Below are positions 14,252 through 27,677 of a stretch of DNA of 64,000 nucleotides, one piece after another (the stretch's first letter is position 1; each line of letters starts with the position of its first letter). A program made the translations under genes and the position numbers. Source of the stretch: Candidatus Tenderia electrophaga (GTDB lineage Bacteria > Pseudomonadota > Gammaproteobacteria > Tenderiales > Tenderiaceae); contig CP013099.1 of assembly GCA_001447805.1 (NCBI GenBank), forward strand, positions 3,295,181 through 3,359,180, in the 5' to 3' direction. The notes beneath the pieces were generated by a model, which did no database searches, was not told the DNA's origin, and saw only the letters and a program-made list of their open reading frames with translations.

Positions 14252-14284
14252 GAAAAAAAGACCCCCGCTGTGACAGCGGGGGTC
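14252..14284 (-). terminator. intrinsic terminator of the cold-shock gene
   Basis: An 11-base-pair perfect stem (14260-14270 with 14274-14284) with a three-base loop is followed on the minus strand by a run of seven T (plus 14253-14259). It lies 25 bases after the stop of the cold-shock gene. Confidence 0.92.
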
Positions 14285-14309
14285 TGCTTATCTGATGGCT
14301 AATGGCCAA

Positions 14310-14516
14310 TCAAACTTGCGGCTGAACTTGCGCAGCTTGCAGGCCTTTGGGGCCTTTTTCCACTTCGTAGTTGACAGTCTGGCCTTCGGCCAAGGTCTTG
14401 AAGCCATTGCCGGTAATGGCGCTGAAGTGTACGAACACGTCGTCGCTGCCGTCGCTTGGAGAGATAAAGCCGAAACCCTTGGCCTCGTTAAACCATTTAA
14501 CAGTACCTGTATTCAT
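14310..14516 (-). CDS. cold-shock domain protein (CspA family)
   Basis: A 68-residue single cold-shock domain that binds single-stranded RNA and DNA and melts RNA structure. It opens [17 protein letters not shown] with RNP1 KGFGFIS (13-19), has RNP2 VFVHF (27-31) and ends [10 protein letters not shown], all standard. The start follows GAGG at a good distance. It has a long 5' region free of genes and its own terminator, the normal arrangement of a cold-inducible csp gene with a regulatory leader. Which CspA paralogue it is cannot be told. Confidence 0.95.
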
Positions 14517-15043
14517 TTTGAAATCCTCAAAAGCATAATTGTGTAGAGTGTTGCATGCAGGTGACGCAGAGGATTCAGAGAGGTGCCGAGAAGAAGGGTG
14601 TTCAGGGTGTTCTAAGAAAGCCAGCTTGAGTCAGTGCAAGCGGAATTCACTATAACCCAGTTTGCAACAGAAAGCTTGTGTTTTTTATCCTGAGCGTGCA
14701 CGCGGGTGGACGGCCTCCCGACGCGTATTTCGCCGATGTCCTGCTGTTGTAAACGGATCCCCGCGGATACCCCACGGTGCCGCGCCGCGGCGGCTGGGCG
14801 GCGCGATGGGCGTGCAACGGTCGGGCATTGCTCTTCGGCCGCGCCATGCATCAGCCTAATGTGTTAATTAAATCAATGCCTTGAAGTGGTGTTGCCGGGG
14901 CGGGCTGTTTCATCGGAAAAAACGATAAGCATGTTCGTAATAATCAATTTCCTATATTTATTAAGCTGGATTAAACTTCTTTCAAAGGATAGAAAAGAAG
15001 TAATTAGCACTCGTTTTAAATTTATTATAAAGAGGATACGACC
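14517..15043. other. intergenic region: csp leader and upstream region of the exported repeat protein
   Basis: No convincing gene. Minus strand: a TATAGT hexamer at plus 14649-14654 could be the -10 of the cold-shock gene, giving a leader of roughly 125 bases, as in cspA. The middle (14700-14850) is very GC-rich. From about 14930 the sequence turns AT-rich up to the AGAGG ribosome site at 15031 of the following gene, but no clear -35/-10 pair stands out. Open frames crossing this stretch have no protein-like character. Confidence 0.5.
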
Positions 15044-25678: not shown

Positions 25679-26344
25679 ATGAAAAAGCTTTTGGCAATAC
25701 TCGGCGCCGTGACCTTGCTGGCGGGCACGGATATGGTACTGGCGGCCGCCACCGGTACGCTGACGCATATCGATGTGGACGAGTCCAATGAGGCGCGCCA
25801 ACGGGGGGCCGAAACCGTCATCAGCACCTGTCTGCTGTGTCACAGCCTAAAGTACGTCAAGTTTATCAACCTCACCGAAATCGGCATGGCCAAAGAGGAC
25901 ATCGAATTTCTGTTGATGGACCAGGGTATCAGCGACCGCATGATGAGCCTGTCGCCGGTGGAGGTGCGCGAGGAGTCCTACGGCAAGGTGCCGCCGGACC
26001 TGTCGCTGATGGCGATCGCGCGCAAAAACGGTCCGGACTACCTCTACACCTTATTGACCGAGTACTACTACACCGAAGAGGGTGAAACGGATAATCATCT
26101 GTTTCCCGGCATCAAAATGCCCGATGTGTTGGCCTACGCCGATACCGAGCCGGGTTCGGCCGAGCGCGCCGAGGCCGAGGCCCAGGCACGCGATGTGGCC
26201 TCGTTTCTGAAGTGGACCGCCGATCCGAACGCGGACACGCGCGAAAGTATCGGCGTGTATGTGATGATCTACCTGGTCATTCTCACCGCACTGTTGTATC
26301 TGCTGAAACGCCGCGTCTGGCGTGGGGTGCACAAAACCGAATAA
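25679..26344 (+). CDS. petC: cytochrome c1 subunit of the bc1 complex
   Basis: A 221-residue c-type cytochrome. Residues 1-23 form a signal peptide; the haem is bound at CLLCH (51-55) and the sixth ligand Met is in GIKMPDVL. The domain has the EESYGKVPPDLSLMAIAR and YLYTLLTEYYY segments typical of bacterial c1, and one C-terminal anchor helix (VYVMIYLVILTALLYLL). It completes the petABC operon. In many gammaproteobacteria sspA/sspB follow; here a tiny membrane protein gene follows instead. Confidence 0.96.
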   Translation: MKKLLAILGAVTLLAGTDMVLAAATGTLTHIDVDESNEARQRGAETVISTCLLCHSLKYVKFINLTEIGMAKEDIEFLLMDQGISDRMMSLSPVEVREESYGKVPPDLSLMAIARKNGPDYLYTLLTEYYYTEEGETDNHLFPGIKMPDVLAYADTEPGSAERAEAEAQARDVASFLKWTADPNADTRESIGVYVMIYLVILTALLYLLKRRVWRGVHKTE

Positions 26345-26403: not shown

Positions 26404-26419
26404 TGTGATCTATGTCACA
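26404..26419. promoter_or_regulatory. perfect CRP-type binding site
   Basis: TGTGA-N6-TCACA is an exact match to the cAMP receptor protein half-site consensus with correct spacing. It lies between petC and the small membrane protein gene. If the site is centred at -41.5, transcription would start near 26453, and a weak TACTGA-type -10 lies at 26443-26448. Vfr and other CRP-family regulators share this motif. Confidence 0.65.
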
Positions 26420-26495
26420 GAAAACGGCGCGCGTGTGGTCTTTACTGATAGTGAGGACGAAATAAAGTCCCCGTCAAGATGATAGGAGGTGCGTC

Positions 26496-26627
26496 ATGAC
26501 CCTAGGTGCAATGAGTTTCGGAATCATTTTACTGGCATGCTTAGTGCCCACCATAGTCGCCGTATTGGCAACCGAACTTGATGAAGAAGTCGCCATGCGC
26601 GGCGGTTCTCACAAGATCCACCACTAA
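26496..26627 (+). CDS. 43-residue small membrane protein
   Basis: An ATG preceded by an almost perfect ribosome site (TAGGAGGTG, with AGGAGG at 26484-26489). The product opens MTLGAMSFG, has a single hydrophobic helix (about residues 8-26, FGIILLACLVPTIVAVLAT), then an acidic ELDEEVAM and a basic GGSHKIHH end. It is too short for most gene finders. A strong terminator follows and a CRP-type site precedes, so this is a complete transcription unit. I know no named family. By analogy with CydX- and CcoM-like subunits, it may stabilise a respiratory complex, but that is inference. Confidence 0.68.
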   Translation: MTLGAMSFGIILLACLVPTIVAVLATELDEEVAMRGGSHKIHH

Positions 26628-26652
26628 CGTAAAAAAGTGCGTTAGGAAGCGC

Positions 26653-26690
26653 AAGGCTCCGTCCGCAGAGGGTGGGGCCTTTCCTTTTTT
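26653..26690 (+). terminator. intrinsic terminator after the small membrane protein
   Basis: AAGGCTCC (26653-26660) pairs with GGGGCCTT (26674-26681) with one G-T pair, followed by TCCTTTTTT. It lies 25 bases after the stop of the 43-residue gene and before the convergent lipA. Confidence 0.75.
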
Positions 26691-26708
26691 CGGGGTGGGC
26701 AATTCGGT

Positions 26709-27677
26709 TTAAGAGACCTGCTGTCCCGCCGCCTGCAGGTCGGCATGATAAGAGGAACGCACCATGGGTCCGCTGGCCACATTGCTGAATCCCAGTTGTT
26801 TGGCTGTCTGGGCCAGGCGCTCGAAGCTCTCCGGCGTGACGTAGCGCTCCACCGGCAGATGGTGACGGCTGGGTTGCAGGTACTGGCCCAGGGTCAGCAT
26901 GTCCACATCATGGGCGCGCAGGTCGTGCATCACCTCGATGATCTCCGCATCGCTTTCACCCAAGCCCAGCATCAGGCCCGACTTGGTCGGAATGCCGGGA
27001 TGGGTGCGCTTGAAGCGCTGCAACAAGGTCAAGGACCATTGGTAGTCTGCGCCGGGACGGGCCTGCCGGTAGAGCCGCGGCACGGTCTCCAGATTGTGGT
27101 TAAACACATCCGGCGGGGCAGTGCCCAGTTCGGTCAAGGCGACGTCCATTCGGCCGCGGAAATCGGGCACCAATATCTCGATGGTGAGTTGCGGCGAGCG
27201 CCGGCGCGCCGCTCGGATGCAGGCGGCGAAGTGGCCCGCGCCGCCGTCGCGCAGGTCGTCGCGATCCACGGAGGTGATTACTACATAGCGCAAACCCATG
27301 GCCCGGATGGTCTCGGCCAGGTGCTGCGCTTCGTCTGGATCAAGGGCTTTGGGGCGACCGTGGGCGACGTCGCAAAAGGGGCAGCGCCGGGTGCAAATGC
27401 CCCCCATGATCATGAAGGTAGCGGTGCCGTGATCGAAACACTCGCCCAGGTTGGGGCATTGCGCCTCCTCGCACACGGTGAATAATCTTTGTTCCCTGAG
27501 TATGCCCTTGAGCCGCGCCACTTCCGGACTGGTGGGCGCCTTGGCCTTGATCCAGCGCGGTTTTTTCAGCGGCTCGTCCTTGGGCACCACCTTGATGGGG
27601 ATGCGCGCGGTCTTGGCGGCGCCCTTAAGCGGGGCCAGGGATTCGATGCGTTCGCGTTCCAGGGATTTGTCCGACAT
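26709..27677 (-). CDS. lipA: lipoyl synthase LipA
   Basis: A 322-residue radical SAM enzyme that inserts two sulfurs into protein-bound octanoate. The auxiliary cluster cysteines are in [12 protein letters not shown] (Cys69, 74, 80) and the radical SAM CxxxCxxC is CTRRCPFC (95-102). The later segments [21 protein letters not shown] and the near-terminal [10 protein letters not shown] with the cluster-ligand serine are present. It is the last gene of the dacA-dat-ybeD-lipB-lipA series, seven bases after lipB. Confidence 0.98.

What the first reader, a model, noticed from the sequence alone, without database searches (positions are those of the whole stretch)
26404..26690. Unannotated 43-residue membrane protein with a perfect CRP-type site, after petABC
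Seen directly: an exact TGTGA-N6-TCACA, a near-perfect AGGAGG ribosome site, an ORF with one hydrophobic helix flanked by acidic and basic ends, and a terminator 25 bases after the stop. Together these are a complete, compact transcription unit that a length cut-off would miss. Known: small single-helix proteins such as CydX, CcoM-type and AcrZ bind respiratory or transport complexes. Inference: this one may tune or stabilise the bc1 complex or another membrane complex under catabolite or redox control.
Basis: partly seen in the sequence, partly recalled or inferred. Interest (0 to 1): 0.75.

Follow-up and report, generated by a model that had tools for sequence, protein, structure and literature searches.

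The report
Conserved CRP-linked membrane microprotein in Tenderiales
A 43-residue membrane protein beside the bc1 respiratory genes is a real, conserved gene with a conserved CRP-type control site, found almost only in one small bacterial order; its function is unknown and its link to the bc1 complex looks like a neighbourhood coincidence.

Summary
Window 26404-26419 is an exact TGTGA-N6-TCACA, AGGAGG lies six bases before the ATG at 26496, a 43-codon ORF runs to 26627, and a terminator starts 25 bases after its stop. It is a genuine gene. A homologue occurs in 9 of the 11 genomes held for the order; the two without it are draft genomes in which PetC is not found either. The frame is under strong purifying selection (closest pair dN 0.09, dS 1.17). 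The CRP-type arms are conserved in every upstream region that could be read (7 exact, 2 with one mismatch) while the N6 core drifts. The genome encodes a CRP/Vfr orthologue. No Pfam, NCBIfam or PDB family matches. A diverged relative exists in one other gammaproteobacterial order. The bc1 interpretation is weak: petABC lies elsewhere in two of the four genera carrying the gene, while lipA stays nearby in all; paralogues and distant homologues are not next to petC. Best reading: a lineage-specific single-helix accessory or modulator protein of an unidentified membrane complex, under cAMP-CRP control. The host is probably 'Candidatus Tenderia', an electroautotroph. New family of a known kind.

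The parts
26404..26419 (+). CRP/Vfr-type site TGTGATCTATGTCACA
   Evidence: Exact palindromic arms. Arms conserved upstream of orthologues in G001, G002, G003, G006, G007, G009 (exact) and G010, G004 (one mismatch), with varying N6 core.
26447..26452 (+). putative -10 hexamer (GATAGT); aligned bases are TATAGC in G001, G006 and G007
   Evidence: Inference from alignment A3: same spacing from the CRP-type site in most orthologues; no conserved -35; no sigma-70 consensus hit.
26455..26470 (+). short inverted repeat GGAC-N8-GTCC in the presumed 5' leader
   Evidence: Also GGACA..TGTCC in G001 and G006, GGAC..GTCC in G003, GGGG..CCCC in G009; not evident in G007 and G010. Window fold is not better than shuffles (z -0.21); role unknown.
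26484..26489 (+). ribosome binding site AGGAGG
   Evidence: GGAG invariant in the 8-sequence alignment.
26496..26627 (+). 43-aa single-helix membrane protein gene, founder of an unnamed Tenderiales family
   Evidence: Homologues in 9 of 11 order genomes; pooled pS 0.76 versus pN 0.21; alignment A1 invariants L16 P18 A25 D29 E30 G37 H39 H42.
26653..26691 (+). intrinsic terminator (12-pair stem, then TCCTTTTTTC)
   Evidence: stable hairpins follow the stop in all 8 orthologues folded.

Best explanation
The locus is a self-contained gene for a single-pass inner-membrane microprotein, controlled by cAMP-CRP (Vfr-type), in the order Tenderiales. Most likely the protein packs its helix (invariant Pro18, nearly invariant Cys15, small residues) against a larger membrane protein or complex and stabilises or tunes it, with the conserved tail (D-E ... 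A-M-H-G-G-[FW]-H-K-x-H) docking at the membrane surface or binding a metal. Shown: the gene is real, selected as protein, and carries a conserved CRP-type site and a terminator. Inferred: CRP regulates it (direction unknown); one membrane-spanning helix with a probable N-out/C-in orientation; a partner-binding mode of action. Not determined: the partner.
For: Homologues in 9 of 11 order genomes, and in all three of those at least 90% complete and at most 5% contaminated; the two without it (77% and 88% complete) also give no PetC match. Closest pair dN 0.09, dS 1.17; pooled pS 0.76 versus pN 0.21 in frame, while the other two forward frames give pN above pS. CRP-type arms kept while the core varies. 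The genome encodes a CRP/Vfr orthologue (PDB CRP/CAP E 2e-88, closely matching recognition helix). One hydrophobic helix in all members. Positive charges only C-terminal. hhalign links the distant group at 94.8% probability, E 5.5e-8, while NapE, another small helix protein with a mid-helix proline, scores under 1%. Characterised single-helix microproteins of this size, such as CydX (PMC4325964) and CcoM (PMC10433244), are subunits of membrane enzymes.
Against: No partner is identified and no neighbour apart from lipA is conserved. The paralogues read in full (L015, L016, L017) lack a good CRP-type site at the matching distance. The CRP-type site lies about 35.5 bases before the putative -10 (roughly -47.5), not at the canonical -41.5 or -61.5, so activation by CRP is not established.
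Confidence: 0.5

Rival explanations
1. It is a dedicated accessory subunit of the cytochrome bc1 complex encoded by petABC just upstream.
For: Directly follows petC in genera g1 and g4. In G004 the contig with petC ends just after a one-mismatch CRP-type site, as expected if the gene follows.
Against: G007 and G010 keep both petC and the gene but apart, 54 kb away or on another contig, and no homologous ORF was seen directly after their petC. Paralogues are not next to petC. Stable hairpins with T-runs separate petC from the gene in G001, G002 and G006. The distant homologues are also not next to petC.
Confidence: 0.1
2. It acts without a fixed partner, altering membrane state or potential under starvation, like E. 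coli YohP.
For: Same size class and topology; YohP is linked to starvation and lowers membrane potential (PMC12719787). CRP control would fit an energy or starvation signal.
Against: Sequence-specific conservation of the tail (D29, E30, G37, H39, H42) and of mid-helix C-L-V-P suggests a defined binding surface.
Confidence: 0.2
3. It is a metal- or haem-linked membrane protein using the H-x-x-H tail, for instance serving metal delivery to a cofactor-containing complex.
For: H39 and H42 are invariant in the order, often with further histidines at 35 or 43; Cys15 is nearly invariant.
Against: The distant group keeps FH-x-K but not the second histidine. No other metal-site signature.
Confidence: 0.12
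4. It is a type I toxin-like hydrophobic peptide.
For: Short, hydrophobic, strong ribosome site, duplicated in some genomes.
Against: No sigma-70 promoter-like site found on either strand around the gene; single copy at a stable locus in most genomes; strong purifying selection; hydrophilic conserved tail; conserved CRP-type control.
Confidence: 0.03

Closest known systems
CydX (cytochrome bd accessory subunit, 37 aa; TIGR02106/PF08173 named from memory)
   Same: Size, single helix, variable sequence with a few fixed residues.
   Different: Lacks the CydX motif YxxWxxGx15E/D (PMC4325964), is not beside cydAB, and gives no Pfam or NCBIfam CydX hit. The window genome's cydAB has its own small hydrophobic ORF after cydB.
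CcoM (36-aa cbb3 oxidase subunit of Pseudomonas stutzeri; PMC10433244)
   Same: Single-helix size class; a subunit of a respiratory enzyme, one possible mode of action here.
   Different: No sequence relation was tested directly; not beside cco genes.
NapE (TIGR02973)
   Same: Small single-helix protein with a mid-helix proline; one paralogue gives E 0.054.
   Different: hhalign against NapE sequences under 1% probability, nine residues aligned.
YohP (27-aa E. coli membrane protein; PMC12719787)
   Same: Tiny membrane protein under nutritional control.
   Different: Shorter; no homology tested.

Membership tests
CydX | Motif YxxWxxGx15E/D (PMC4325964) or curated model hit | tested here: not met
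   Motif absent in all 15 sequences; no Pfam or NCBIfam CydX hit.
CydX | Encoded with cydAB | tested here: not met
   cydA is at G000:C1:331500, hundreds of kb away on the chromosome, with its own small ORF after cydB.
NapE | Profile similarity above the curated cut-off | tested here: not met
   13.6 bits against a cut-off of 68.8; hhalign 0.4-0.7% probability.
bc1 accessory subunit | Genetic linkage with petABC | tested here: not met
   Unlinked in G007 and G010; linked in genera g1 and g4.
bc1 accessory subunit | Co-purification with bc1 | not testable with these tools
   Needs an experiment.
CRP-regulated gene | TGTGA-N6-TCACA site conserved between species | tested here: met
CRP-regulated gene | Cognate CRP/Vfr protein in the genome | tested here: met
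   G000:C1:3584640; CRP E 2e-88, Vfr E 7e-87.
CRP-regulated gene | Site at a canonical class I/II distance | tested here: inconclusive
   About -47.5 if the putative -10 is right; start site unknown.

The most novel reading that the evidence does not exclude
A lineage-specific microprotein subunit or regulator of the electron-transfer chain in electroautotrophic Tenderiales, with a metal- or haem-binding histidine tail, placing part of that chain under cAMP-CRP control.
Probability: 0.12. Interest if true: 0.7.

Novelty: new member of a known kind. Interest (0 to 1): 0.42.

Why it matters
It adds a well-supported protein family, absent from Pfam, NCBIfam and PDB by sequence search, to an order that probably includes the electrode-growing 'Ca. 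Tenderia electrophaga'. It shows how a conserved regulator site plus frame conservation can rescue genes below annotation length limits, and gives a concrete candidate CRP target in an autotroph. If its partner proves to be a respiratory complex, it would be a handle on how this uncultivated organism tunes electron flow.

Tried and rejected
Phylum-wide search with the 15-sequence profile gave only short chance matches, mostly inside long ORFs. NapE homology was suggested by one weak hit and rejected by hhalign. Missing CydX: rejected, cydAB has its own small ORF, although that ORF has no Pfam match itself. A CRP regulon inferred from the other four exact sites: no respiratory or otherwise related gene set was evident near them, and their number is near chance. 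Naming the organism through its 107-kb contig in the plasmid collection gave no match. The main text of the Tenderia metatranscriptome paper (PMC5371394) does not mention CRP or cAMP, and none of the 'small' or 'hypothetical' passages shown concern this gene; its supplementary tables could not be opened.

Full report
What is there. On the + strand, between petC (25679-26344) and the convergent lipA (26709-27677, minus strand), the window holds TGTGATCTATGTCACA (26404-26419), AGGAGG (26484-26489), an ATG at 26496, a 43-codon frame to 26627, and a terminator from 26653. Upstream, petA, petB and petC are confirmed by Pfam as the Rieske protein, cytochrome b and cytochrome c1. lipA is named from its sequence by eye, not by a family search.

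Is it a gene? Yes. A homologue with an open frame is found in 9 of 11 genomes of the order, all assigned to one family, in four of five genera; the two without it are 77% and 88% complete and also give no PetC match. In the named genome collection one relative of the window's genus is titled 'Candidatus Tenderia sp.' (L019; its contig has the same length as G003:C246). From this and the genome layout (3.66 Mb plus a 107-kb second contig) I infer that the window comes from Ca. Tenderia; the plasmid collection did not confirm it. Between the window and its closest relative dN is 0.09 and dS 1.17; pooled over 28 pairs pS is 0.76 and pN 0.21, and the two other forward frames give pN above pS. In the codon alignment all gaps inside the frame are multiples of three. 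Three genomes (G001, G004, G010) hold a second copy elsewhere.

Is the control site real? An exact TGTGA-N6-TCACA is expected a few times per genome by chance, and five are present. But an exact site lies 77-92 bases before the ATG in G000, G001, G002, G003, G006, G007 and G009, and a one-mismatch site in G010 and after petC at the contig end in G004. The six core bases vary freely while the arms do not. The genome encodes a CRP orthologue whose recognition helix (RQELGRIVGCSREMVGRVLKNLE) closely matches CRP and Vfr. Eight other CRP/FNR-type proteins over the family cut-off are present, so the identity of the regulator is inferred from the site. The putative -10 sits at a fixed spacing in most orthologues, but the geometry (centre about -47.5) is not canonical, so activation versus repression is open.

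What does the protein look like? AlphaFold gives a single helix, residues 3-35, mean pLDDT 80. Hydropathy over 19 residues is 2.4-3.0 in all Tenderiales members. The N-terminus carries no positive charge; lysine, arginine and histidine are all in the tail, which suggests N-out/C-in by the positive-inside rule, weakly because the tail is also acidic. Invariant positions are L16, P18, A25, D29, E30, G37, H39 and H42. A diverged form (MEATWYEILIWTLVPTLIGVLASEIDVLGTIKDHFHIKPKAGV) occurs in three genomes of one other gammaproteobacterial order, where a second tiny hydrophobic ORF follows it; hhalign supports homology at 94.8%. No Pfam, NCBIfam or PDB sequence family matches.

Does it belong to bc1? 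The neighbour that stays is lipA, seen downstream in every complete locus read, with one extra gene between in G007; petC adjacency is lost in G007 and G010, and nothing similar was seen directly after petC there. Relatives G001, G002 and G006 have a terminator-like hairpin between petC and the gene, so it is an independent unit. The paralogues sit beside unrelated genes. The bc1 reading is therefore not supported beyond local synteny. The published metatranscriptome groups bc1 with succinate dehydrogenase and the canonical cbb3 oxidase as a possible forward chain (PMC5371394) but is silent on this gene in the passages read.

Verdict. A real, selected, CRP-linked single-helix microprotein family, new by sequence, of a known general kind. 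I commit to a helix-packing accessory or modulator role as most likely (0.5), with partner unidentified, and put bc1 at 0.1. That the gene is real I hold at about 0.97, and CRP control at about 0.85.

Noticed in passing
L079:3850-4014 (G000:C1, after cydB): Small ORF directly after cydB (MTNPIIKRLTTRWSQRQREWGWFLVLWCAGMLGVLGLTALVRLVMAL region) that may be the bd oxidase's own accessory subunit; no Pfam family hit above cut-off.
   Followed up: partly
L028:1317-1445, L029:1315-1425, L031:1306-1461 (minus strand): In the other gammaproteobacterial order the diverged homologue is followed by a second conserved tiny membrane ORF (MAKERLVSSDDAPIVVGLAVITILLMVLGSWVSITT), suggesting a two-microprotein operon.
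   Followed up: partly
L028, L029, L031, upstream of the diverged homologue: A conserved GTGA-N5-TCAC-TGTA element, one base shorter than the CRP-type spacing, precedes the homologue in the three genomes (AGTGATCTTGTCACTGTA, GGTGACCTTATCACTGTA, GGTGATGTTATCACTGTA).
   Followed up: no
L009 and L017 (G010:C7:185820-186903): Two family members about 1 kb apart flank a 176-aa cysteine-containing ORF; only the first has a CRP-type site.
   Followed up: partly
window 26455-26470: Short inverted repeat just downstream of the putative -10 that recurs in several orthologues with changed but paired bases (GGAC/GTCC, GGACA/TGTCC, GGGG/CCCC).
   Followed up: partly
window 14255-14661, minus strand: Rfam cspA thermoregulator RNA (RF01766, 89 bits).
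   Followed up: no
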